23,879 nt of DNA from Spongospora subterranea (taxonomy: Eukaryota; Endomyxa; Phytomyxea; Plasmodiophorida; Plasmodiophoridae): NCBI GenBank assembly GCA_900404475.1, contig OUQQ01000288.1, positions 1 to 23,879 on the forward strand, read 5' to 3'. The number at the start of each line of letters is the position of its first letter. Within the stretch, counting starts at the first letter, position 1. The translations under genes and the position numbers were made by a program. Positions 1 through 23,690 of the stretch are shown here, piece by piece. Under the pieces are notes generated by a model. It did not search any database. It was not told the DNA's origin and saw only the letters and a program-made list of their open reading frames with translations.

Positions 1-833
1 CCGGTGGGAAACGCACTTCTCCCACGCTACTTTTTCAACCTCGGGCCACGCTAGAAACATGTTCAGTTAGCGATTTAGAGTTTAGCGCGACGGGTGGGGA
101 TGCTCGAAGTTTTAAAAACTCGGTGAACCGGACTAACATTGTTGAACGGAGGGAGTATTCGTTGATGATCAGGCGGCGGTCGGATTAGCAGCACCCTGCA
201 GCTTCATGATGGATTCATCGACCTCAACGAATCATGTTCTTGAGTGAGCGATTGACAGCAAAAATTACCCCACCACGCTCCCGGTTTGTCAAGCTAATTA
301 GTAAATATCATCGAGAGTTGGGAGGTTCGTCCCTATCAGGGGAGAACCATCCAGTAGGACATTGACGGTCCGTATCAATCAAAATCATATTGCATTGACG
401 TTCAGCCTGAGCTGTTTTTCCAGTTTTTCTCATGAAAGCCGACTCAATATTCTTGGGCAACCGTTATCTGATGTAGCGCCAAGCAACGTTCGTGCTGATC
501 TTCGTATGCCACGTTCGTCTAGTCATTTTTTTGAGAGCCGTCAATATCCCACCACGATCTGTCATCAGGGGTTCCGATACTTTTTGTCGATAGTAATACA
601 ACAGTCCCCGTTAGATGCATTGAAATCATCTTTAAACAGAGATACCGGTTGGTTCAGGAAGATCCCAATAACAGCACATATTACCATGAGAGAGCTGGAA
701 TGTTATTCATATCATTCTCCTGATCGTCAAAGCGTACCCAATCGTCAACTCGCAATTCATCGTGAGGAATCTGGGTTTGGTCAACACCCCTGAGAGTCGT
801 TGGAGAGGCAACAGCCTCGTTCCCTCTCCAAAC
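1..833. other. Left-edge region and 5' flank of the NIPA gene, no gene identified
   Basis: I see no supported gene here. A 143-codon frame at 362-793 on the + strand has no recognisable motif and a composition that looks random, so I do not call it. The last few hundred bases are presumably the promoter and 5' untranslated region of the downstream NIPA-type gene. An AUG at 762 lies in frame with the chosen start at 834, but the added residues do not look like family sequence. Confidence 0.5.
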
Positions 834-2258
834 ATGTCCAGCGACTCCTCGCCGACGGTCGAGGAGAACCCTCATCTGTGGATATTGGGTGCCGGTTTGG
901 CCATAGCCGGGTCGATCATGTCAACGCTCGGCGTAAATATCCAGAAGTACACGTTCAAGACGAACGCGAATCGGCCATCTGGCGGCGAACACATCGCCTA
1001 TTGGAAAGACCCATTATGGTGTCTTGGACTGGGTCTGGTCGTGGCCGGATCGGTCGGGGATTTCTCAGCTCTCGGGTTCGCCGCCCAATCGATCGTCGCC
1101 CCGGTGGGCGGGTCGACGTTGGTCGCCAATCTCGTGTTCGCCATGATCTGGCTGAAAGAGCGGATCAGCTACAGGGATATGGCGGGGACGACCATGATCC
1201 TGTCGGGTTCGATCCTCGCCGTCGTGTTCGGCAACCACCAGGAGGTCACCTACACGTTGGAGCAGCTGTTGACCCTCTATCGCGGGAGTTTGTTCATCGG
1301 ATACGGGTGCGCCGTTCTCGCGATCGTTATCGCATTGGCCATCGTCGTCAATCATTGCGAATTGACATTGCGAGCGATCGCACGAAAACAGGTTGAACTC
1401 GATCAAGGACGTTCTTCTCTGTCCAACGAAGCCATTACTAGTATTCGCCAAGATATGGTTGAACTTGATCTATCATACGCCCCATTCGTTAAGGTCAGGA
1501 ATATCAACCGCATTTGATCATTGGATATCTATATTCATTTAGCGCGTTTTTGCTTTCGGACAATATATCAGTCTGTAATTTTCTCGAGTTTCACTGATTC
1601 ACATTGTCTGCAGTGGCATCCGTTCAGTCTCTGCACATTATCTGGTACTTTGGGGGCGCAATCGATCCTGTTCGCCAAGTGCATGGCGGTTCTGTTGAGG
1701 AGGACGTTTGAGGGCGACAACCAGTTCGATAAACTGCTCACGTATCTGTTCATCGTGTCGTGCACCGTCACGATCAGTGGGCAGATCCATTTCCTGGCCA
1801 TGGCGCTGCAGAGATTTGATGCCCTTTACGTCGTCCCCGTGTTCCAATGCGCCTTCATCGGGATATCGACGCTGGGCGGAATCTGTTTTTTCAAAGAGTT
1901 CGCCACGTTCGATCTGATACAGAGTTTCATGTTCCCCATTGGGCTCACGATGACGTTGATTGGCGTTTACCTGTTATCGCAAAGGAAAATGTCGGGGACC
2001 GCAGCACGATCAACAGAGTTAGTGACGAGACCAGATCGCCCTGGATTCAGCCATCGGTCCAATCTGGAGACGCGCAAAAGCGCGGAGGAGTTCAACGATG
2101 AGATGGACGGAATGACGCCATTGGTTCCGCTATTAAGCGCCGCTTGGAAGCTGAAACGATCGCTGACTAGCGATGAGCTGGATTTCGTATTAGATCCCAA
2201 CTGGGTGGAGATGTCGGTGAAAGAGTTAACATCGCGAGAGGAACCAGGTGGAGAATAA
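834..2258 (+). CDS. NIPA-family magnesium transporter, two exons
   Basis: Predicted polytopic membrane protein of the NIPA (DUF803) family, whose characterised members carry Mg2+ across plasma or endosomal membranes. Exon 1 is 834-1493 and exon 2 is 1614-2258, giving about 434 residues. Family signatures are a first helix beginning GAGLAIAGSIMSTLG followed by VNIQKYTF, the block PLWCLGLGLVVAGSVGDFSA, then SIVAPVGGSTLVANLVFA and LKERISYRD, and in exon 2 SGTLGAQSILFAKC. About eight to nine hydrophobic segments are visible, followed by a soluble acidic tail of about 90 residues. The AUG at 834 has A at -3 and lies just before the first helix. The intron begins GTCAGG at 1494 (GTTAAG at 1488 is an in-frame alternative) and ends CTGCAG at 1613, with an ACTGATT branch-like motif. 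Codons in exon 1 are richer in G/C at third positions than in the genes to the right. Substrate specificity cannot be read from sequence. Confidence 0.9.
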
Positions 2259-2644
2259 CCACTTTAGAGCCGGGATAGTTTCACCAATAACAAATATACA
2301 TTTGAGTGTTTTGTCTCTTCAACGATCTTGCTGAGATTTACCAGGTTCTGTTGGAATTGCCATTGGGTATTGTTTCAAAAGGGCATTTCAACACTTGTGG
2401 AACCGACAGAGTTTGTTTCAGTGAATACAAAATCTGCAGATGTGCCGCAACATCAACCGGATCGGTTGCACAGCAATCTGTAACTGTTGATCGATGGCCA
2501 TACTGACGAGGGGGCGACTACACACAGTTGAAACACAACCAGAGGTACCAGAGCCGGATCAGATTACTGTACCCCCTCGTCATACGATATAACCAATTCC
2601 CTCGGCGTGTTTCGCCACTTGAAATTCCAAAATCCTAACACGTA
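2259..2644. other. Intergenic, NIPA 3' flank and Kazal-gene promoter
   Basis: This 386-base gap separates two genes on the same strand. A 66-codon frame (2306-2506) shows no motif. I see no clear poly(A) signal or TATA element and no RNA gene. Confidence 0.5.
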
Positions 2645-3988
2645 ATGAGGACCGGTTTGACGATTGTCGTGGCGGTGCTGGTTGTCGCACTCGGACACGC
2701 ATGCATGTGTCCAGCAAGATCTCTGTGCATGAAGGCAATGACGGCCGACTACTTGTTCAAGGGAGTGGCGGTTTCGGTCAACTCTTCGATGACGTCCCAT
2801 CAGATCACGTTCCGCGTCACGAAGTGGCTGAACTCTCCATACTCTGGCGCTACAGAGAACGAGATCGTCGTAAGGACTCCTCTCAACGAAGCTGGGTGTG
2901 GAATTCGAGGACAGATCGTGACTGGGACTGAATACGCCATGAGCGCCGATTCACAGAAATGGTCGACATCATGCGGGATCATCCATGTCTGGTCGACGTT
3001 GCCTCCACAAGACGCTCAGCTATTAAATGGCGGAGGTCGATGCCCAATCTGCCAAACGTTGAAATGCGGAGCCCAGCAGAACTGTGTCGTTGTCAGCGAC
3101 AGTTCGGCGTATTGTGCAGATACATGCAGCTCTGGTCGCTGCCCACCTGACCAAACCTGTAAACTTGAAGCGGTTGAGTGTATCAAGGCACCATGCCCAC
3201 CGGTGGCCAGATGTGTGCCAACCCCTGTTCCTACCAGGTCCTGCTTATCGATGTGCTCGGCAATCTATCAGCCGTTATGTGGTAGTGATGGAATCACCTA
3301 CAGCAACAATTGCACATTATCGAACGCCAAATGTTCGAACCCTGGTTTAGCAGTATCCCATCCTGGGGTGTGTTGCACCAAACAGTGCTGCAAGTTCAAG
3401 CAATGTCGCCCATTTGCCACTGGGGAATACTGTGCTGATGTTTGCCATCCTCAGCGATGCAACAACGGGCTCACTTGTGTCCTGAAGCCCCCTCCGTCGT
3501 GTCCTCAAGAACCATGTCCTCCTATCGCCACCTGTGTCAACAAATGCAAAAAGCTCGATATATGCCCAATGTATTTTCGTCCGTCGTGCGCCAACAATGG
3601 CGTCACATACGGAAACGATTGTTTGTTCCAACAAGCACAGTGTAATAATCCGAACCTGGCCATCATCCATGATGGTGTTTGCGACCAAAACGCAGCAAGC
3701 AATTGCGGTCAACAACTATGTCCAGACATCTGGCAACCCGTTTGTGGATCAGATGGGAAAACCTACGGCAATAGCTGTTTTTTCAACTTAGCGCAATGCA
3801 AAGACCAAAAACTGTCAATCGCGAGTGAAGGAATATGTCAATGTGATAAAGCATGCCCTAAATCCATTGCTCCCGTTTGCTCAAATCAAGGGGTCACGTA
3901 CGGAAATCGTTGCCTTCTCGACGTTGACGCTTGTAAAAACCCGAACATCTGGTGGCAAATGGATGGGGAGTGTCAAAAATGTCAATAA
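2645..3988 (+). CDS. Secreted multidomain protein: TIMP-like NTR domain plus four Kazal domains
   Basis: Intronless, 447 residues. A signal peptide (about 1-19, ending ALGHA) precedes CMC, the Cys-X-Cys start typical of mature TIMP/netrin-like domains; that domain would span about 20-125 with Cys20, 22, 28, 85 and 110. Four Kazal-type domains follow at about 200-243, 301-346, 354-398 and 400-443, recognised by the pattern C-x(2-3)-C...P-x-C...G-x-TY-x-N-x-C; the third has the full VCGSDGKTYGNSC core. Two other Cys-rich modules (about 133-190 and 246-297), each ending in a CPPxAxC motif, sit before Kazal 1 and between Kazal 1 and 2. By analogy with ovomucoid numbering (P1 two residues after the second Cys) the P1 residues would be Ala, Met, Asp and Lys, implying different protease targets. 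Kazal domains inhibit serine proteases and TIMP N-domains inhibit metalloproteases. The inhibitory role is inferred; an adhesive or matrix role is possible. Confidence 0.9.
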   Translation: MRTGLTIVVAVLVVALGHACMCPARSLCMKAMTADYLFKGVAVSVNSSMTSHQITFRVTKWLNSPYSGATENEIVVRTPLNEAGCGIRGQIVTGTEYAMSADSQKWSTSCGIIHVWSTLPPQDAQLLNGGGRCPICQTLKCGAQQNCVVVSDSSAYCADTCSSGRCPPDQTCKLEAVECIKAPCPPVARCVPTPVPTRSCLSMCSAIYQPLCGSDGITYSNNCTLSNAKCSNPGLAVSHPGVCCTKQCCKFKQCRPFATGEYCADVCHPQRCNNGLTCVLKPPPSCPQEPCPPIATCVNKCKKLDICPMYFRPSCANNGVTYGNDCLFQQAQCNNPNLAIIHDGVCDQNAASNCGQQLCPDIWQPVCGSDGKTYGNSCFFNLAQCKDQKLSIASEGICQCDKACPKSIAPVCSNQGVTYGNRCLLDVDACKNPNIWWQMDGECQKCQ

Positions 3989-4371: not shown

Positions 4372-5848
4372 TCAGGCTGCCTCTTCGCGTTCACTGATAA
4401 GTGTACCAACTAGCATCATTTCCAGCAGATTGCGAGCAGCTTTTGAATGTGTATGGCGCTTCGAGTACATCTCTTGGACATGCTGGGGTGGGGCTGAGGC
4501 CATCGACTTCAACAGTTGGTCACCACCAGGATGGTCTTTGATGAAGTTTGCAACATCGTATACTCTGAAAAAGATTTGTGAAATTGAACTTGTTGATATC
4601 GGAGATATACACTTACTTCCCATTAAGTGACACCCACAATTTGCCATTGTCTCTTGCATTCAAATATTCTGATGTTGAAATTTCAACGTCGTTGAGAGCG
4701 GGATCAGGCCAAATAATGCTTTGCTTGACACCCAGTAATCTCGACTCTTGAACTTGATAACTAGTTGTAAAAGTCGGTCAATCACATAATCAGGGATTAT
4801 AGGACCATTTTACGGACGTACATAGCTTTACGGATCTCATTTTCATTAGGATGCTTCAAATCATACACGAGTCCGAAGAATCGAGCAATCTCGATAATAC
4901 GGCGAGTAGGGTCGTAATGATACCTGTCGGAAACCGTGTAAGGTACAACAAGTTGCTCAGAAAGTTATCTCACCATTTGAGACCATTTTGGTAACTGTAT
5001 GAGAACGCATGATGGAAGCCGTGATTTCCTTCCCCAAATGTGAGAAGAGCCGTTAACAGATGGTCTTTGGCGGATGTTTCATTAGAATATTCATTGTGTC
5101 CAAGCCAGTGAGCAAGAGAGTTAACACACCTGACGAAAACAAGGATAAATTACACTAAAAATACTGAAATAGACAAATATACCAGGTAGAATGCCAAGTG
5201 AATAGACGAGCCCATAAACCGCCATACACTAGCGCTTGTACAGGAGAATGGTAAAATATCAGAAGAGGCATACCGAATGCAACAAATAGTCCTTGGTAAA
5301 CGTATGTTTTATGCTGGAACATAACGACCCAGTCCTAATGAAAAATAAGAAACGCCCTGATTGAGCAGATCAAGCAATCTTACCTTTTTCAGATCGTTGA
5401 CATTGATTAGGCGAAGATACTCTGAACGATCAACTTTGTGGAACATCCATAAGCAGTGGGAATACAAAAACCCGCGGTTCGGAGCTAAAAACAGATGTTA
5501 ACATGCTAATGGCACAAAATAATGAATATGGTCACCGTATGGATCAGCTGGAGTATCAGGAAACGAATGGTGTAGCCGATGGAGTCTGCTCCACCAGAGG
5601 ATGGATCCTTGCAAAGCACCCGCACCCCAGAACGCCCACCAAGCTCGCCATGCCGTAATTGCTTCATAGGATTTATGGCAAAATAGCCGATGATACCCGA
5701 CTGTGATAGCCAGGCCGGTCATCAGGTACATGGTGGCAAACGCGTAGACTCCTGTCCATGTTATCGGGACGTAGATGGCGCCGAGAACTGCAAGAACGTG
5801 ATATGAGGACACAAACCCCAAAGGAATCCAGTCAATGTGGACCCCCAT
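4372..5848 (-). CDS. Acyl-CoA delta-9 desaturase with C-terminal cytochrome b5 domain (OLE1-like)
   Basis: Di-iron ER-membrane enzyme that inserts the first double bond into stearoyl/palmitoyl-CoA; the fused b5 domain supplies electrons. Seven exons join in frame: 5848-5536, 5484-5384, 5334-5183, 5129-4974, 4923-4822, 4760-4617 and 4564-4372, with introns of 49-61 nt, giving 386 residues. Histidine boxes are HRLFCH (53-58), HRLHH (90-94) and NHGFHH (224-229), and NSLAH (192-196) holds the Asn and His that also bind metal in SCD1. The b5 domain (about 285-380) has the heme motif DHPGG (333-337) and a second candidate heme His at 360/362. A C-terminal b5 fusion is the usual fungal arrangement. 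The start at 5848 gives a short N-terminus. The frame stays open upstream without an ATG, and a CTACAG acceptor ending at 5895 could mark a missed 5' exon. Confidence 0.94.
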
Positions 5849-7757
5849 CGCTGAATCAATCGGACACGAGCTGGGAGAACGTTGAACCTCCGAACTGTAG
5901 ATCGTTTCAGTAATGATGATGGGACCGTGACGGTACAGTTACTCAGTGGCCACTAGCGAAGCAGTGCTCCCCTTACAATGCGCAACTGCGCAACTGAGGC
6001 GAAGCTCGGACGCCGAGCACCAGCCCGTCAAGAGATAAACGGTTAACGTGACTGGGAGATGAGCAGTTGGCGGGATCTTGATATACCAAGTCAAAGTCGG
6101 GTCGGGTTCGGATTAACTGTAGTTGTTCAAGTCATGTTCGGGGTGGTTTTCGCACATCTCTGACGGGACTGCTGCTGCCCTACAGTTGCCCGATTGTAAG
6201 GTTAAGTACAGTTGGCTGGCTTGGGCGTAGGCGCAACACGCACTTTCCGACTTGGCGCCTGCCTAACTACAGTACACGGACGGGGTTGGACCTTCTGAGC
6301 GTGCCATGACGAGATGGCAGCTTGTATTTATTGGATCGGTGTGAAACAGATTCAGGGTACAGCTTGTACATGTCAGAAAGGTTTGTCCAACCGGAAATCG
6401 TTCGTTCAAAAATTGACCACTGATCCTGTTGATATCGTTGAGCTGCTAAGCGCCCTCAGTCGTTTTCCCGCTTGTTTATTGTTGCGCCTTCTGCTGCTTG
6501 TTGTTCATCGATGGTCGCCACCCCGGATCTTGTTCGGTTCGGCGACGGACACGACCTGTGCCGCGTGTTTCTCGGGTCCAAAACGGCTCAACAGACGTTT
6601 ACGGAACAGCTCCAGGGCGGACCGAAAGCTATCCCTCCAGTAGCAGTCGGTGCGACTAAAAAGAAGTTTTAGCAAGACCAACAGTTGCCACTTGTCGCCG
6701 CTAAATCCCTTTTACTTGCAGTCCTGATGAAATCTGGACTGTTTATGGATGAAATCAAGGTCTTAGCGATGGGGTTTGATGATGAACCATAATGTGTTTT
6801 GACAAATTATGTTCCAGAATTGTCATCATTGTGAGTTTTGGATTCTGTTGACTAAAGCATGTCTGCTGTCTGATAGTGACACCAAACTCAGGCGAAAGTA
6901 CTGCGAATCTGGGCACATATTTTTTTTTAGATATTTATGGTTCATCATCACACATCGCTATTTTGATTCTCTTTCATCGAACGCTCCATCTATATGGGTC
7001 TTGTCCAATTATCATCTTCTTGATCTCCCATGTCGTAACACTCTAGCAAGGGCGTGTCTCTCAAACCGGCATTCGTAAGCGGCGGCTTTTTCAAAACAGA
7101 GGCTTTGCTTCATTTGCTATTGTGTGTATTCCTTAAACTTGACGGATGTGTGTGCAACTGCAGCACTGCTTGCCTACCATCGTATCCTCTAGATTTTACA
7201 GTTTTAGATCGGAATGACGCAACGGAAACTCTTGACTCGTTTCAGGTTTTGCTGTGTTAAAACCTTACTCCATGTTTCACGTTATGCTCATTTGGATTAC
7301 CGATAACGATATGCGCTGCCAGCAAAAGCCTGCAAGTAATATCCTACGACCACGATCACGCTTACCATTCTCTTTATTTCACTAGCTAAGCGCAGTCCTA
7401 CATAGCATTGCGTTGAACCTTCAGAGTTTGAAACATAATTCCAGTGGAGTTTTCCCAACGTTAGAAGTTGTTTTCACGATCCTTGCAGAGAAAATGAATG
7501 TGATACGGAAGTGAACGTGGCGGTATAGGTACTTGCGGCATCTGCGCTCGCAACTGAACTGTGGGGATGTTTTTGTCCCGATATGCTTTTCTCTACGCGA
7601 TGAGCATCAAAGATAAGATCTTTTCAGTATCAATGGTGAATTTAGAGTCGAATCGGAAGACAGGGCACTGGCCTTCTTGAGAAGCGGTTACGTTATCGCA
7701 AGCCGGTCTGAATACGATTAAAAAGAAACTACAAATATATTTTTATGGACATTGATG
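5849..7757. other. 1.9 kb gene-poor region
   Basis: This is the longest stretch without a firm gene. The left part (5940-6300) is G/C-rich and presumably includes the desaturase promoter; it contains the short tandem TGCGCAAC-TGCGCAAC at about 5979. The right part (6690-7750) is A/T-rich with only motif-less frames (6809-7078, 7054-7260). One small + strand frame at 6511-6672 is listed separately. I see no tRNA, no transposon ends and no long repeats. Confidence 0.45.
6511..6672 (+). CDS. Possible small protein, unrecognised
   Basis: A 53-codon frame from ATG to TAG starts MVATPDLVRFGDGHDLCRVF and ends in a basic ATKKKF tail. Its codons are rich in G/C at third positions, like NIPA exon 1 and unlike the A/T-rich bases after it, which is the main reason to record it. 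An overlapping frame (6314-6643) could supply an upstream exon through GT/AG pairs, but I could not settle a model. I do not recognise the family. It may be a real small or last exon, or chance. Confidence 0.27.
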   Translation: MVATPDLVRFGDGHDLCRVFLGSKTAQQTFTEQLQGGPKAIPPVAVGATKKKF

Positions 7758-10700
7758 CTATAAAATACACTGCTTGATTTGTTCTGTAAAGATTCTATCG
7801 GCAGTCTCCAACATGATATCAGATACTTCCTCATCAAAATTCCATTCTTCACTTCTGACATCGGCAGCAATCATTGCTTCCAATGCATCATTTTGATTGT
7901 CCACAGTTTCCTCTGAGTTCACTATCTTCATCACGTCGTCAATCAAGGCTTGGAGAGTAGGAGGTGACCAGAAATGGTCTAATAATCGTCTGTCAAATCA
8001 AATAAATTGTGAGGAACGATTACAAGTGTGGAGATTTGACCTTCTTCTATTGATGTGGCAGTACTGCGGAGGGGGTTCGATCTGATGCCGGTTTTTCTGA
8101 AGAACTTCTCCAAAAATGTCGTATACAAACTCCCTAAACTCTGACTCGGCTGCGCTAGCGTCTGGGAAGAAGTTCTTCTCAATTCGCTGATACGTCTTCA
8201 AGTCGAGTATTAGTGGAGCTTGCCAATCAACCGGCCCGATAACTTCCATGACGACAGAAAGATACCGGGTAATTGCAATAGGAGATTGAGCAATTGCAAT
8301 TCTGGCTAGGTTTGGTGAATCTATATAAAGTAAGATACACAAACCAAGTATACATTTCATCCATCTTACCGTTACCAATTTCTTGTGCAGAAGTCCAACA
8401 CTCCGATTTGACGCACTCAGCCAAAGCATCGAGATCAAGGTCGTCCTGATCCTAGAATACAATCAGCGATTTGGCGAAGTGCCAAAAGAGAGACTGCCTA
8501 ACAAGGAGGGTTGCTGACGGGTCGTCCATAAGCAATTTCATTTGTTGCATTGCTTTTTCTTTACGGGCATCCTGGAAATTGCTGTCAAAATGGCACTCAT
8601 TGTTTAACACAGCGGGGATAACTCCTAAAACTGGGTCAATGTTTTCCAGCATAGAAACAACCTCAGCTCTTACCGGAATAATCCAATTCGGATATAGATT
8701 GCGATATAGAAGACCATATTTGTCGAGACAGGGCATCAGCAACTGACACTTCTGATTGACCGATTAAGCAGTTGATAACACAGAAACAGAATACCATTAC
8801 CGTCCAGTACTTCAAATAATAGATGATTTTCCAGAGGGAGGCCTGGGGACGCTTCGTCATCAGGATGTGGTGGAGCAGTAAGAACCGATTCGCTAACGCC
8901 AGAAAGGATATTCGTTGATAAGGTGAGAGCAGGTTCGGCATTCGTTAGACGTATGGAATCATGGAATTCAGTTTCGATTTTTTTTACATCTTCAAAAACT
9001 TCAGGATCCAACCGATTGTGATGAAATTCAGCTGTTTTAACATCATCAACATGATTGTCGGCACTTTCAAAATCACCGGTGCCAACGTGAGGCTCCGCAA
9101 CAAATTGTGGACAATCAGCAGATTCCGATGTGATGAAAACGGGTGAGCTGAGACCTCGATCAGTTAAGGACAGTCCTTGATCTATAAGGTGGGAAGAAAC
9201 AACCGAATAATTTTCGTCAGGGGAAGCATCGCCAACATCACAGGTGCTACAAACTCCAGCTTTAATCTCACCATAAACGCATCCGGGATGAACGCTTGCC
9301 GCCACTGAATTTGTTGTGTCACAGTCTTGCGATGAACCGCGATTATTCGGGAAATTACAGGAGACCATGGATTCCTCAGAAAAAATTGATTGCGTTGCTG
9401 TAATATCTTTGCTGAGAGAAGTCGCAGACTCGTGGAAATTGCATTCATGAGCGTAAATGGATTCTGCAACACAATTCGAGTCCAAAATAGTGTCTACTAC
9501 CATTGAGGCGCCGTGAGGAACAACCTTGGGATCCGCGATTGGATCGGGTTCGACAGAAGAAACTGGGAGCCCGCCCTCGACAACATTGGAACCATATGAT
9601 GACTTGACTGGGACATGGAGAACATCGTCGTGCGGTGCCAGCAAATCGAATAAGTAGCTTTCATCTTCACTATTGGAGGATTCCCTGATTTCGTCAATGA
9701 TCTCCTCTGTATCCTCAGTCGAGACGACACCAGGAGACAATGTTGTTATCGTATCCGAAGCATTGAACAAAATGGATGTTTGACTCACTGGATCCAACAA
9801 AGGGACATTGACGGCTGCAGCTTCATCAATAACAGGAAGCGTCTCAGAAGGAGCTTCGTCAAATAGCTCGGTGACCTTCAATGAACCCTGACGATCGGCA
9901 TCGTAGAAATCGGTTTGGTACGGGGCAGAATCAGATTCGTCAGGGGAACCGGCGCACGTCGGATCGCACTCATATGTTAGATGTGGAGGGACGGTTTCTT
10001 GAGATACTGAACCCAGTAAAGAAGGAACATTGACGGCTGTAGCTCCATCCGAAACGGCAAAAGTTTCAGTATGGCTTTCGTGAGATAGATCGGTAGCATT
10101 CAACGACAATTGACGATCGACATCGTGAAAATCGGTTTGGTACGGGACAGAATCAGATTCGTCAGCGGAAACGGCACTCATCGGATCAAATTCATATGTT
10201 AGATTACTTGGAGGGACGGGTTCTTGAAATACTGGATCCAGTAAAGAAGGAACATTAACGGTTACGGCATCACCCGAAACGGGACACGCTTCCGAAGGGT
10301 TTCGGTGAGACAGATCCGTAGCATTCAACGACAATTGACAATCGGCATCGTGAAAGTCGCTTCGGTACGGGGCAGAGCCAGATTCGTCAGCGGAAACGGC
10401 ACTTATCGGATCGCACTCATTCGTTAGATTACTTGGAGGGACGGTTCCTTGAAATACTGGATCCAGTAAAGCCCGACCATTGACAGAGGTAGCTCCATCA
10501 TGAATGGCAGAAGCTTCAAAATGGCGTTCGTAAGACAGGTCGGTAGCATCAAATGACAAATGACGATCGGCATCGTAGAAATCGCTTCGGTACGGGGCAG
10601 AGTCAGAATCGTCAGCGGAAATGGCACTTATCGGATCGCACTCATATGCTAGAGTACTTGGAGGGAGGGTTTCTTGAAATACTTGATCCAGTGAAGAAGA

Positions 10701-13700
10701 ACCATTGACGGCTGTACCTCCATCCGGAACGGCAAGAGCTTCAGTAGGGCGTTTATGAGATAGATCGGTAGCATTCAACGACAAATGACGATCTGCATCG
10801 TAGAAATCGCTTCGGTACGGTGCAGAATCAGATTCGTCAGCGGAAACGACACTTATCGGATCGCATTCATATGTTAGATTACATTGAGGGGAGGTTTCTT
10901 GAAATACAGGATCCAGTGAAGAAGGAGCATTAACGGCTGTGGTTTTATCCGAAACGAGAAGCGCGTCACTAGGGCTTTCGTGAGATATATCGGTGATATC
11001 CNTGACGATCTGCATCGTAGAAATCGCTTCGGTACGGTGCAGAATCAGATTCGTCAGCGGAAACGACACTTATCGGATCGCATTCATATGTTAGATTACA
11101 TTGAGGGGAGGTTTCTTGAAATACAGGATCCAGTGAAGAAGGAGCATTAACGGCTGTGGTTTTATCCGAAACGAGAAGCGCGTCACTAGGGCTTTCGTGA
11201 GATATATCGGTGATATCCATTGAAAAATGAAGATCGGAATCGTCGAAATTGCTTGGGTCCGGAGAAGAGTCGAATTCAACAGCTGAAACGGCATAAACAG
11301 GATCAGGATCATACATTATATCACTTCGATGGATGCTGTTTGGCAATTCTGGATCAAGTGAAGGAGTACTGAGCGTCGCAGACTGATTCGGAAGCGCCCG
11401 ACCAGGACCATTGTGAAAAATATTGGTAGTATCCGATGCAAAATGACGATCGGGATCGTCGAAATCGCTTTGATACGGAATAGAATCGGATTCAGCAGCT
11501 GAAACGGAATGCATCGAATTGCACTCACGCATTGAATCACTTGGAGAGATTATTTCTGCAGCATCTATAACATTGTGTTTCGATTCATAATCTGCTGAAG
11601 ACATGTTGTTTTGCAATGTGGAGGTGACACCATGTGTTTCTTCCGTGCAGGGAAAATCAGTGGCAGGGTGAGCCTCAGTGCAAGCTCTGTCGCCATGGAG
11701 AGAAATCGTAACTTGACCTTGGATAGGAAGTAGACCGAAGCTAGTGGGCGAATTGGAGTCGGATAATAACTGGTCAAAATTACCTGGCTGTTCAGTGACA
11801 CCATTTGAATCAGCGAGAAACGATTCAACGTCAGAGTGATTGAATTCATCGGCAGAATCCTTGGCTGATTCGGGTATGATGATCGAAATTTCGCCTGAGT
11901 CCGATCCTTCATGTTCGTTGATGAAAGACGTTGATGAATACACGTCGTCCGGTATTTCATAGAAGGTGGAGTTTTCGGGAGACAAGCATTCGTCTTTTGA
12001 CTGGCCACATAAATCCAATGACAATTCACGGCTTCCAATTTCTTTGGATAGAATTTCGGAGTGAGCCTTTGAAGGGACAACTCGATCCTCAAACTTGTCG
12101 CCATCAGGGTCGCTATCATTAACCACCAAGTCCGAGATAGACTCAACAGCATGGTTTGAAGTTATCGTGACAGACTCAGACTCAATTGGTTGTTGCACAT
12201 GGGATAAAGTGGAAGGCGTCCAATCCGGTTCGGTTCCCGGGGATATATTCAGGCCTAAATCGATCTCGAAAGAACCAACAGACAACTGGTCAACATCTTC
12301 AGATGGAGACACTTCACTTCTTGAAGAGTTATCAACAACAGGACGATTTTGAGTGTCTACTGCGACTTTGCCTGCGTCATGGTCACTGGGCGTATTTCCG
12401 ATATTGTTGATTGTAAAAAGACCAGATGACAATGTTTCAGCTGTTTCCCTTTCTCCGTCCACCGAGGTATGCTTGTCTACAGAATATATCGAGCGCCCAT
12501 CACTGCGGAATAGATGCGTTTGAAACCTAGTAATTTCAGTTTGCTGCTGCATCGGAGGAAGTCTCTCGAAAGAAAGTTCGCTGGATCGCAATGTGTTGGA
12601 AGCATCAGATTTGATCGGAATGTCCTCACGCGCAGTCGGATTTTCGTGCGCCTTTGTGTTGAAGTCTTTGTCGAAATCAGCAGAAAAATCGGTGTACACA
12701 TCCGAGGATTCCGAGCATCCTTCGTATTCAAAATTGTTTCGGGACTTGTGTGAAATAAGCGGCTGAGCTAATGTGTCTTGGTGCGCATCAACATGGCACG
12801 GAGACGGGACAGGAATTGTGATTGTTTCTTCAAAAGCTGGCTTCGAACTATTCTTGGAAGGGGTAGGACTTGATGGTTTTTGTTTTGAAGTCACGTCGAC
12901 AGGTGATTGGTTACTGTTGGCCTGACAAAATACAGATCAGATTGTTACCATGATGAAAATTAGCGTTGAAATACCTCAGCAAATGACAGAATTGTTGGAT
13001 CTTCCGAGTTTTCTAGGATAACCTTTTCAGACCTGAACCAAAATTGATCATTTGTCACATACATTAATTCGTTATCCATTTTGAGCTCTTACTTAATCTG
13101 AGCATCCGGGAATTTCAAAAAACTATCACACTCATTGAAAGATTGCCTGATGATCGTCCTAAGCGTGTCAGAATCTGGAACCCGCTTGAGAATTTCTTGC
13201 AGCTCCTCGGTACATTCTTGTTTGTGAATTTTCAATTTTTGCTCTAACGCTGACTGCTCAGTGAAATGGTTTGTTTGTAACGTAACATCATTGAGCGCGG
13301 CTGCGAGCTGCGACTTTGTGCTTCTAACAGTGTTTGTCAAATGGGTAATTTCTTGAGATAACTCTAAATCTTGAAGATCGCGCCTGGCTTGGTCAATTGC
13401 CTCAAGGTGATCTAACTCTGACATTAACTTTCGCTCAAGAGAACTCGGCGATATCTGGAAAGTCTGCAGTAAGTTAAGCTTTGATTGGCCATCTGCGGTT
13501 GAGCTGGGCACTGGACTTGTATTTGGTGGCGTTGTTGGACCAGAAGGAATACCATCATTTTGACGAGGTTCAGAGACATCTGAATCACTAGCAACATCCC
13601 TAACATCCTCAGTTGCTTCCGACTCACAGGAGTCAAACCGCTCATGGCCAGTGACGGTAACGTGATCCACAGAGTTGTGTAATTCGACCACCACCGGCCG

Positions 13701-15762
13701 AAGCGGAGAAGGTTGTATACGTTTTCCATGTTTGGGTGATCGTGAGAACGAGCGCAACTGAGAAGGCCTGCTCATTGGAGGAGTCGTAGGTCTGGGAAAA
13801 GTCGCAGTCCTGTCTGCAATCTGTTCCCTGTGATCAAGAACCCGTCTTGTAAAAATGTTTAAAACACTAAGAGGATTCGCCGATGGATATTGTAGATACT
13901 CCTGATTCTCATCAGTTAAAGTCGTGTCCTGAGAACTGTTTTGATGAGTTGAAATGGCGTCGCACTGGGAACCTTCAGACAAACATATACTTTGAGGGTT
14001 CGATTGTTTAACCTCGACTACATCCATAAGATGACATAGCTGCATTGAATCGGAACGAACTGGAATCTGACATCCTGCACCTGCGCCGTGATGGGATAGA
14101 ACATCAATGACAGATGGGAGATTGATGAGAACTTCTGGTTCAGAAATTTGCATAGGAGTCGACGGTTGAAGACACAGACCAGCTTGCAACGTTGCTTCAG
14201 GGAACAACGGTTCCATAGGATTGCTCGAAAATGGTGCGTCAGTAGCACCATCAATTGAACTTTGCTGGTTGCTATCTGATTCAGTAGAATTCGAGTTGGG
14301 GTTTGAGTCACAAGTCTTTTTGGCCACTGGCAATGAATCGTTATGGTTCGACGTGAACCTCGCAATCCTGTATTCAAGAAGTTCTGCTGACTTTCGAACT
14401 CGTTGTAAAAGTTTTAACGACGAATTAACATTATTCTGGGGGATTTCTGACTCCTGGTCAATATTAGTTTCATATGAGCCAATAACCTCGGTGGCATCGT
14501 TCTCAGTGCGTTCTAGGATCGTGGGTGAGCAAGGAATTGATGTAATTTCAGTGGCGGCTATAAAATAACAGTTAGTACACAAATCGTGTCGCGAAAAAAT
14601 AATTATCACATTTCCCGGGAAATAAAATATTTGTGGCAGCTAAAGCCGATTCAACTAGCCAAAATGAGTATACAATAAGATTGGTCAAGTATCATTAGAT
14701 TACTTTGTGGATCTGGAATGGATGGGGATGGCTCGGAAGCGTGAGAGGGGGCTGTATGCGTGGTTGGTTGGAATAAATGTATCAAAAAATGAAGTATTTA
14801 CCAGAGCGAAGTTGCCGTTGTTTCTTCAAAAGAGACCTCTTTCTCGAAAGAGCTGCGCCATTCAAATGAGACGCTTCAGATCGTTGCACATTAGTGATTC
14901 TTTGACGCTGCCTCTTCACAAGCATAAATTAGGGATCGCACCGATAACTATGCTGATGAAGTTACCTCTGCATTCTCCTTTGATTCTTGAGATCGTTTTC
15001 GAGCTGCTTGTTCTTTCTTGTTTTGCATGTATTTTTTCAACTGCTCCGAATCTGGGTGGCGGTCTTTTCCCGGAACGTGCTGATGAACGCTTAGTAATGT
15101 AAGGTCAATCAAAAACCTAAAATGTATCTTCACCTTGCTTGTTGCGTCAGATTTTCGGATGCTAATTCTGCGGATCGCCTTCTTGGCATCTTTCGTAAAA
15201 ATTGTGCCTGGGAGTGGCTGTCGTCACGCTAAATAATCCCATACGTTAAGGAAAATACCAACAGACCTTCACTTGAACCGGAATGTTTTCAGAAGAATTG
15301 AGTATTCGCTTTTGACCATTGGTACGCTGAGACCGACAAATATTTAGATCAAAAGAATGTTGAGACGCTGTCGCTCACAGTAGAATCAGAGAGGCCCTTT
15401 CCAGGAATTATCGCTTCTTCAGCTTCCGCATTATTGAAGTGAATATTTGCGTTCGATTTAGAAAATATGTCAGATATTCTGCTCCTATGTCGAGTCCCGG
15501 GGTTGCTGGAGCTTCGAGAATTAGGATTAGGATTAGGGCGACAGACCCTCTTAGATGCTCTGTCAGCGATAACACCAGAATCTCGTTTAACGCGAACTTT
15601 GTCTTGCGCTTGGACAACTTTGCTCAGGTTACGCTGACGAATGTTTTCCGATAGTTGTTGCAATGCCTGGCGACGTTGCTCTGCTTCTAGGGCTTTCTGG
15701 GCGGCGGCTTGTTGTACCTCATGCAGCGTGAACGCTGCCTGCGAGATCCGAGACTTATTCAT
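7758..15762 (-). CDS. CEP350/CAP350-like centrosomal protein, 15 exons, broken by an assembly gap
   Basis: Exons on the - strand: 15762-15379, 15326-15267, 15228-15134, 15089-14966, 14913-14802, 14751-14704, 14654-14610, 14557-13093, 13032-12975, 12921-8801, 8751-8674, 8630-8503, 8451-8376, 8320-8041, 7989-7758. All phases match once 217 bases (one N plus one copy of a 216-bp duplication) are left out of exon 10, giving about 2362 residues. CEP350/CAP350 and plant TRM proteins anchor FOP/TON1-type proteins at centrosomes, basal bodies or microtubules. Support is strongest at the C-terminus: an acidic, Trp-containing helical block (EEWNFDEEVSDIM, then ADRIFTEQI) matches the CEP350 C-terminal pattern, and VADALSRQIWSSISQSISEL precedes it. 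Exon 8 ends in a coiled coil (about residues 650-765) with SPSSLERKLMSELDHLEAI. Exons 1 and 4 encode basic Ala/Gln/Lys helices such as LKKYMQNKKEQAARKRSQ. Exon 10 is acidic, Ser-rich and repetitive. The donor of intron 2 (38 nt) is ambiguous. The family call is moderate; a single gene is well supported. Confidence 0.8.
9750..11490 (-). repeat. Coding tandem repeat array, about 225 bp (75 residue) units
   Basis: Six to seven imperfect units within exon 10 of the CEP350-like gene. The landmark TGACGATC/TGACAATC (read on the + strand) recurs at 9889, 10111, 10336, 10561, 10786 and, diverged, at 11228; spacings are 222, 225, 225 and 225. Each unit encodes a block of the type SDSAPYRSDFYDADR, a TDLSHE stretch, TAVN, LDPVFQE and ECDPISAVSADE. 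The outermost units are most diverged, the central ones most alike, as expected for unequal exchange. The repeats are acidic and Ser/Asp-rich, so probably disordered. Confidence 0.93.
10786..11218. other. Assembly break: exact 216-bp direct repeat around a single N
   Basis: Bases 10786-11001 and 11003-11218 are identical at every position I compared, and 11002 is N, the only ambiguous base in the window. The shift of 217 bases breaks the reading frame; skipping it restores one continuous frame. This is what a scaffolder writes when two overlapping contig ends are joined with a minimal gap. The alternative is a real extra repeat unit: filling the N with nine bases would give the 225-bp period exactly and also restore the frame. 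Confidence 0.9.
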
Positions 15763-22317: not shown

Positions 22318-22763
22318 CGAACAATATACGCTTCAAATCAAATCAACCCAGTGGTCACCGGGAGTGATGATTAGTGCGTCCGTCAATGACACTTTTGTGA
22401 ACAAACGAAACCAATCCCCCCGGCCCAAGGGTTGGCGAAAAAACCATCGGTAACGCTAAGTAGAGCAACATGACACCGTTTTATTCGAAGACATCGAATG
22501 AAGATACAATGCCTGTCGTTTTTGTTGATAGATGAGATGATAATTAGCAAAATCCGAAGCGTTGTTTACTTTTTTAAAAATTCAGAAATGATGATCAGTC
22601 CAAAAGGCATTTGCCAATCGTGAACGATATGGCCTATTTAATCGTTTGTTACGTTTGAGCCATTCCCGTTTACAGAACAATTTTTGTGTTAATCCGCGCA
22701 GTTTGTGGATTTGCGCAGTGATTCACTATCGGCCAGATAAAATCTCAGAAGGATGCTGACAAG
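22318..22763. promoter_or_regulatory. Divergent intergenic region, MED9-like and BDP1
   Basis: These 446 bases separate two outward-facing genes and presumably hold both promoters. A frame at 22235-22453 (+) is antisense to MED9-like exon 1 in part and has no motif. The half nearer BDP1 is A/T-rich. No defined element is recognisable. Confidence 0.45.
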
Positions 22764-23690
22764 ATGACACAAACACCTTCAGATAGGGCGTCTAAGCGTT
22801 TACGGGTTACTGAGCCAACACCTGAAGCCCTCAATTCAGCGAAGAATCGTCTTCCGCTTCAGCCGGAACCTACAGACTTAGAGGAAGAACCTGCAGGGGC
22901 TTCTGGACAAACCCGAACTTTACGCGAAATCATCATGGATCAGAAATCAGGGGTCTGGAGCAAATCAGCCCTGGAAGGCCAAAGAACCAAATCGAAAAAG
23001 CTATCTGCGCCAGAAAACGATCAGGTAGATGAAGTTAGTGTAGGCGAGGAAAGCGTTGTCGGGGCTATACCCGAGCCTGCAACAACTCGAGCGCCTCAAG
23101 TTCGCATCATCGATGGGCGGATTGTTCTTGATCAGTCATCGCTAACCTTTACCACGGGGCCGTCAGTTCCACAAGGACTTCGATCGGTAGTTGATGAGGG
23201 TTCATCAGGTAAAGTCGTGAATTCCAGTTCGTTCACCAAAAGATCGGCTAGTAAACGATGGGATGCGGCGTCCACTGATCGGTTCTACAATTGTTTATCG
23301 AAATATGGGACCGATTTTTCCATGATTGCAGAGCTGTTTCCGGATCGTACTCGAAAGCATATTCACAATAAGTTTAAACTGGAAGAAAGACAGGATCCAT
23401 GCCGTGTGGACGCGGCGCTATTCAACCGAAGACCAGTTGACTTGGACGATTTTCCCATCAAGGTTCGCGAAGATGTTGTTGAGATTAGTGAGGAGGGTTT
23501 ACAAATCGTCGATGAGACGCCTGGACCTACCGAAGGCTCAAGTGAGGGCAATGAGGGCGCGGTATTATCCGAGGCCGAACTCAACGAAACTGATCGGGAT
23601 GGAGAAACTGGTTACAACAGCGCAGAGCAACTTGACGAGGACAGTAGCAGTCATGAGAATCGTGAAATACTTGACGAGATCCTTTCATGA
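22764..23690 (+). CDS. BDP1: BDP1 (TFIIIB B'' subunit), SANT-domain protein
   Basis: BDP1 joins TBP and BRF1 to form TFIIIB, which places RNA polymerase III on tRNA and 5S genes in the nucleus. The gene is intronless, 308 residues, starting at an ATG with A at -3. Diagnostic blocks are PQVRIIDGRIVLDQSSL (111-127), found before the SANT domain in BDP1 proteins, and the extended SANT domain (about 165-215) with KRWDAASTDRFYNCLSKYGT, DFSMIAELFPDRTRKHIHNK and FKLEER. A short basic N-terminus (ASKRLR, residues 9-14) and a long acidic Ser/Glu-rich tail (about 235-308) flank these. It is clearly shorter than yeast Bdp1 (594 residues), with little outside the conserved core. It is the only other intronless gene here besides the Kazal gene. 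Confidence 0.93.
   Translation: MTQTPSDRASKRLRVTEPTPEALNSAKNRLPLQPEPTDLEEEPAGASGQTRTLREIIMDQKSGVWSKSALEGQRTKSKKLSAPENDQVDEVSVGEESVVGAIPEPATTRAPQVRIIDGRIVLDQSSLTFTTGPSVPQGLRSVVDEGSSGKVVNSSSFTKRSASKRWDAASTDRFYNCLSKYGTDFSMIAELFPDRTRKHIHNKFKLEERQDPCRVDAALFNRRPVDLDDFPIKVREDVVEISEEGLQIVDETPGPTEGSSEGNEGAVLSEAELNETDRDGETGYNSAEQLDEDSSSHENREILDEILS

What the first reader, a model, noticed from the sequence alone, without database searches (positions are those of the whole stretch)
10786..11218. Single N flanked by an exact 216-bp duplication splits one gene into two frames
Positions 10786-11001 and 11003-11218 are identical while other repeat units differ noticeably. The 217-base shift (1 mod 3) is what separates two long frames ending and starting here; removing it gives 3904 coding bases in exon 10 in perfect phase with both flanking introns. 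Automatic annotation would report two truncated genes. Either two contig ends overlap and were not merged, or a true additional unit exists and the N stands for about nine bases (216 + 9 = 225, the repeat period).
Basis: seen in the sequence. Interest (0 to 1): 0.75.

Follow-up and report, generated by a model that had tools for sequence, protein, structure and literature searches.

The report
Unmerged contig overlap inside a gene
The doubled 216 bases around a single N most likely come from two overlapping assembly pieces laid end to end without being merged, so a gene looks cut in two although nothing seen here suggests that the organism's own gene is broken; this is an ordinary assembly error.

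Summary
10786-11001 and 11003-11218 are identical (216 of 216), the window's only N lies between them, and the match stops at once at the outer edges. Other pairs of array units are 64-86% identical. The long frames on either side read the doubled bases in the same frame (754 and 644 open codons) and run on through exons with GT/AG borders. In 180,306 sampled bases of the same genome, 3 of 3 other single Ns are flanked by long direct duplications. Two are full dovetails (398 and 334 bases, 1.0-1.5% mismatched) found nowhere else in the genome; the third is imperfect (93%, ending 203 bases short on one side). The one 100-N run has none. 0 of 18,857 random N-free positions show such a dovetail. 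A lone N here probably marks overlapping, unmerged contig ends. A real extra unit is not excluded. The genome is probably a plasmodiophorid (one protein match); the gene encodes a protein with 75-residue repeats and a weak DUF4378-like end. Assembly artefact, low interest.

The parts
10786..11001 (.). Left copy of the duplicated 216 bases: end of the left contig under the overlap reading
   Evidence: exact comparison
11002..11002 (.). Single N, the only one in the window: contig junction under the overlap reading
   Evidence: comparable single Ns
11003..11218 (.). Right copy of the duplicated 216 bases: start of the right contig under the overlap reading
9889..11293 (-). Tandem array, period 225 bases (75 codons); two more diverged units seem to follow up to about 11668
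   Evidence: TRF; unit identities (64-71% for the outer two, with many gaps)
8801..12921 (-).
12975..13032 (-). Upstream exon of the same gene
   Evidence: open across the joins; borders read
13093..14557 (-). Upstream exon of the same gene; exons further 5' not settled
   Evidence: open frame; tries at the further 5' exons met a stop
7758..8751 (-). Five downstream exons (8751-8674, 8630-8503, 8451-8376, 8320-8041, 7989-7758) ending in a stop codon
   Evidence: single open frame with GT/AG borders
7782..8210 (-). Weak DUF4378-like stretch (approximate; coordinates worked out by hand from the residues matched; spans one intron)
   Evidence: Pfam PF14309 E 3.1e-05, 24.8 bits against a cut-off of 25.7

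Best explanation
Two contigs whose ends overlap by 216 bases were placed next to each other by a scaffolding step that did not merge them and wrote one N as a placeholder. The overlapped stretch therefore appears twice. Because 217 is not a multiple of three, one continuous gene appears as two frames. Shown: the exact dovetail, frame agreement of both flanks, and long duplications at the other sampled single Ns. Inferred: that the N is a scaffolder's mark for overlapping ends, and that the array of similar units is why the assembly broke here.
For: Exact 216-base suffix-prefix match that touches the N on both sides and stops at once on the outer sides. 3 of 3 other single Ns in 20 sampled loci (180,306 bases) are flanked by long duplications: 398 bases with 4 mismatches and 334 bases with 5, both full dovetails, and a third of 93% over 581 columns that begins at the N on the right and stops 203 bases short of it on the left. 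The one 100-N run has none in 4000 bases to the left against 471 bases to the right and the first 4000 bases of the next stretch. The 398- and 334-base sequences each match only their own two places in the genome at that search's sensitivity. 0 of 18,857 random N-free positions in the sampled loci have a dovetail of 150-1000 bases with an exact first 20 bases and at most 2% mismatch. Array units otherwise differ by 14-36%.
Against: An exact 216-base overlap should be easy to merge, and why it was not is unexplained. The overlap plus nine equals the array period of 225, as a real extra unit with a short gap would give. No raw reads were available. One of the three comparison junctions (L019) is not a clean dovetail, and the two clean ones carry mismatches while the window's has none. 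The sample is small (3 junctions) and not random: stretches of contigs C1-C10. A direct duplication of about 400 bases at 91.5% occurs without any N (L024:3208-3991), so tandem duplications without an N exist in this assembly too.
Confidence: 0.88

Rival explanations
1. A real additional array unit exists. Two adjacent units are identical over at least 216 bases through very recent duplication or gene conversion, and the N stands for about nine unread bases.
For: 216 + 9 = 225, the array period. The break falls inside a tandem array, where unit number can change. Both frames stay open under this reading too.
Against: No other unit pair exceeds 86% identity. Two of the three other single-N duplications are dovetails of sequence with only those two copies in the genome, so array units cannot be the general cause. 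It needs a coincidence between a nearly unit-sized match and an N that elsewhere seems to mark overlaps.
Confidence: 0.09
2. Isolates or haplotypes in the sequenced material differ in array copy number, so the assembly broke here; the written sequence mixes them.
For: The two clean comparison dovetails carry 1.0-1.5% mismatches, as two haplotypes would. Copy-number changes are usual in tandem arrays (general knowledge).
Against: The window's own two copies differ at 0 of 216 bases, so nothing at this place shows two haplotypes.
Confidence: 0.02
3. The sequence is correct as written: one base at the N and a true frameshift, so the gene is a pseudogene or two genes.
For: Only that this is what the record says.
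Against: N is not a base call. Both sides are open for hundreds of codons in matching frames and run on through spliced exons; the exons modelled hold no other stop or frameshift.
Confidence: 0.01

Closest known systems
False segmental duplication by 'duplicated overlapping contigs' (Kelley and Salzberg 2010, PMC2864568; passages and section 14)
   Same: Adjacent contigs carry the same sequence at their facing ends and look like a recent duplication.
   Different: Their cases needed over 300 bp and over 95% identity, were laid to haplotype differences, and were checked with mate pairs. Here the match is 216 bases, has no difference, and no mates are at hand.
Homotype false duplication (Ko et al. 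2022, PMC9516828; passages)
   Same: Copies without heterozygous differences; [quoted passage not shown]
   Different: That class rests on read depth and k-mers, which could not be tested here.
Scaffolder placeholder for a negative gap (such as the single n of SSPACE: recalled; no paper stating it was found)
   Same: One N between contigs estimated to overlap.
   Different: The program used for this assembly is unknown.

Membership tests
False duplication by overlapping contig ends | Near-identical sequence at the facing ends of adjacent contigs, at or near the gap | tested here: met
   216 of 216 bases touching the N on both sides, (that the N is a contig junction is itself inferred)
False duplication by overlapping contig ends | Length over 300 bp (threshold of PMC2864568) | tested here: not met
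   216 bases; two of the three other junctions exceed it with over 95% identity (398 and 334 bases), the third is longer but at 93%
False duplication by overlapping contig ends | Mate pairs fit better with the ends overlapped | not testable with these tools
   no reads held
Homotype false duplication | No heterozygous differences between copies | tested here: met
   0 mismatches in 216
Homotype false duplication | Reduced read depth or k-mer evidence | not testable with these tools
   no reads held
Genuine extra tandem unit | Identity within the range of other unit pairs | tested here: not met
   100% against at most 86%; a very recent duplication could still give this
Genuine extra tandem unit | Both units present in one molecule | not testable with these tools
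   no reads held
DUF4378 (PF14309) proteins | Score above Pfam's curated cut-off | tested here: not met
   24.8 bits against 25.7, E 3.1e-05: resembles, not filed as a member

The most novel reading that the evidence does not exclude
The identical pair is real: a unit of this 75-residue array was duplicated or converted so recently that no base has changed. The array, whose other units differ equally at all three codon positions, would then be a quickly changing, copy-number-variable part of an otherwise single-copy, possibly cytoskeletal protein of a plasmodiophorid.
Probability: 0.08. Interest if true: 0.3.

Novelty: not a real feature. Interest (0 to 1): 0.1.

Why it matters
It matters for users of this assembly rather than for biology. 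Three single Ns in 180,306 bases would extrapolate to about 340 in the 20.6 Mb held (a rough figure from 3 events), each possibly carrying a doubled stretch that can split genes or mimic recent duplications. Lone Ns in this assembly should be checked for flanking duplications before gene counts, frameshifts or duplications are interpreted.

Tried and rejected
Identity of the gene: searches of the 644-residue piece and of residues 730-997 of the 997-residue piece against 5.8 billion proteins gave no relative. The tool only considers proteins of 0.55 to 1.75 times the query's length, and only pieces were given, so full-length relatives of other lengths would be missed and absence of relatives is not shown. 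Pfam found nothing at E up to 0.01 in four pieces of this stretch of the minus strand (754, 644, 516 and 145 residues). In two further pieces at E up to 10 it found the weak DUF4378 match and two weak hits far below their cut-offs. The link of DUF4378 to CEP350 or TRM-type centrosome and microtubule proteins is recalled; of the 104 papers, the 10 listed held no occurrence of DUF4378.

Reading frame as a way to choose between overlap and extra unit: rejected, since both keep the frame.

Species: the NIPA transporter's best of 4 hits is Plasmodiophora brassicae (58% identity over 80% of the query); this is one protein only. The window's G+C is 45.4%, like Polymyxa betae (45.1%) and Spongospora subterranea (45.7%; both figures in PMC6328671, of which part 1 of 2 of the text was read; the second also in passages of PMC12883290). 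The held totals (679 contigs, 20.6 Mb; the eleven contig lengths seen all exceed 11 kb) would fit a subset of longer scaffolds of the 2,340-scaffold S. subterranea draft better than the 1,001-contig P. betae one. This is inference and was not tested. The 18S search never ran.

A paper that documents the single-N convention: none found that states it (listings; passages). The listings were used only to find papers.

The self-comparison did not print the window's own duplication at its thresholds (probably joined into a longer, weaker alignment across the array; not checked); searches show it.

Full report
What is there. The window holds one N, at 11002. The 216 bases before it and the 216 bases after it are identical, and the identity ends at once on the outer sides. 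The place lies in a 225-base tandem array (9889-11293, TRF, 81% matches). Among the eight stretches compared, the identical pair apart, identities run from 64 to 86%; the lowest values are from the two outermost stretches, whose alignments hold many gaps. All six matches of the 216 bases found in the 20.6-Mb genome lie in this array. At the best unit identity seen, 86%, a chance run of 216 of 216 has a probability of about 7e-15 (a simple independent-site figure).

The gene. On the minus strand the array is in a long open frame. On the 5' side three exons (14557-13093, 13032-12975, 12921 to the N) give 1146 open codons; on the 3' side six exons from the N to 7758 give 997 codons and a stop. 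Exons further 5' were tried and not settled. In coordinates of the duplicated stretch, the two long frames (754 open codons on the low-coordinate side of the N, 644 on the other) are the same frame; no other frame is open for more than 48 codons on either side. So both sides read the doubled stretch alike, and the written offset of 217 (1 mod 3) is what separates them. This agreement would hold equally for one copy or for two full units, so it says that the frame break is probably not real but not how many units exist.

Which of the two readings. I sampled other parts of the same genome: 20 loci, 180,306 bases, from contigs C1-C10 (counted). They hold three single Ns and one run of 100 Ns. All three single Ns are flanked by long direct duplications. 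L017:6377 has 398 bases with 4 mismatches, and L024:5943 has 334 bases with 5 mismatches; both are full dovetails that touch the N on both sides. L019:3871 is less clean: 93% over 581 columns, starting at the N on the right but ending 203 bases before it on the left. For the 100-N run, the 4000 bases to its left match neither the 471 bases to its right nor the first 4000 bases of the next stretch. The 398- and 334-base sequences each match only their own two places in the genome, at that search's sensitivity. Of 18,857 random N-free positions in the sampled loci, 0 show a dovetail of 150-1000 bases with an exact first 20 bases and at most 2% mismatch. In a self-comparison of the loci, four direct duplications of at least 300 bases and 88% identity appear; three straddle a single N and one does not (L024:3208-3991, 91.5%). 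Five shorter rows (100-150 bases), none across an N, were also printed there: two of one array at the end of L014, one each in L015, L017 and L019. The window's own pair was not printed at those thresholds.

Interpretation. In this assembly a lone N probably marks contig ends that overlap but were left unmerged. The window's N fits that pattern and is the only one of the four without a mismatch. The mismatches of 1.0-1.5% at the other two dovetails would suit haplotype differences, as in the false segmental duplications of Kelley and Salzberg (PMC2864568, passages and one section). Ko et al. [quoted passage not shown] the window's pair would be of their homotype kind, although reads would be needed to class it. 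Why an exact overlap was not merged is unexplained; the array's similar units are a likely cause of the break (inference).

What stays open. A real extra unit with about nine unread bases is not excluded: the match is nine short of the period, and no reads were available. It would need an identical pair in an array whose other units differ by 14% or more, and a lone N that means something else here than at the other places. I give it 0.09.

Organism and protein. The best relative of the neighbouring NIPA-type transporter is from Plasmodiophora brassicae (58% identity), so the genome is probably a plasmodiophorid, a group that includes plant parasites; this rests on one protein, and the species is not settled. 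For the repeat protein no relative was found with the pieces searched (both limited by length). A C-terminal stretch resembles DUF4378, just under Pfam's cut-off. The C-terminal 330 residues match only this gene in the genome (6 matches, all in this contig), so it is single-copy at that sensitivity. Among four array units, differences are spread evenly over codon positions 1, 2 and 3 (88, 89, 92 over six pairs that are not independent), so the residues of the array seem little constrained although its frame is kept.

Verdict. It is an ordinary assembly artefact.

Noticed in passing
window 10111-11001: Differences between four array units fall equally on codon positions 1, 2 and 3 (88, 89, 92), so the repeat's residues look nearly unconstrained while the frame is kept.
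   Followed up: partly
L019:3087-4449: Single N at 3871 whose flanking duplication is 93% identical and stops 203 bases short of the N on the left: possibly a diverged haplotype end, unexplained.
   Followed up: no
L024:3208-3991: Direct duplication of about 400 bases at 91.5% identity with offset 399 and no N between the copies: a true tandem duplication or a merged artefact.
   Followed up: no
window 2639-3988: Open frame with four stretches that match Kazal-type protease inhibitor domains.
   Followed up: no
window 690-2258: Two neighbouring open frames that match the first and second part of a NIPA-type magnesium transporter, probably one gene with an intron; nearest relative in Plasmodiophora brassicae.
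   Followed up: partly
window 5498-5938: Frame with a fatty acid desaturase match below Pfam's cut-off (20.1 bits against 29.7).
   Followed up: no
window 22722-23690: Frame with a Myb_DNA-bind_7 domain, as in the TFIIIB subunit B'' (the latter name recalled).
   Followed up: no
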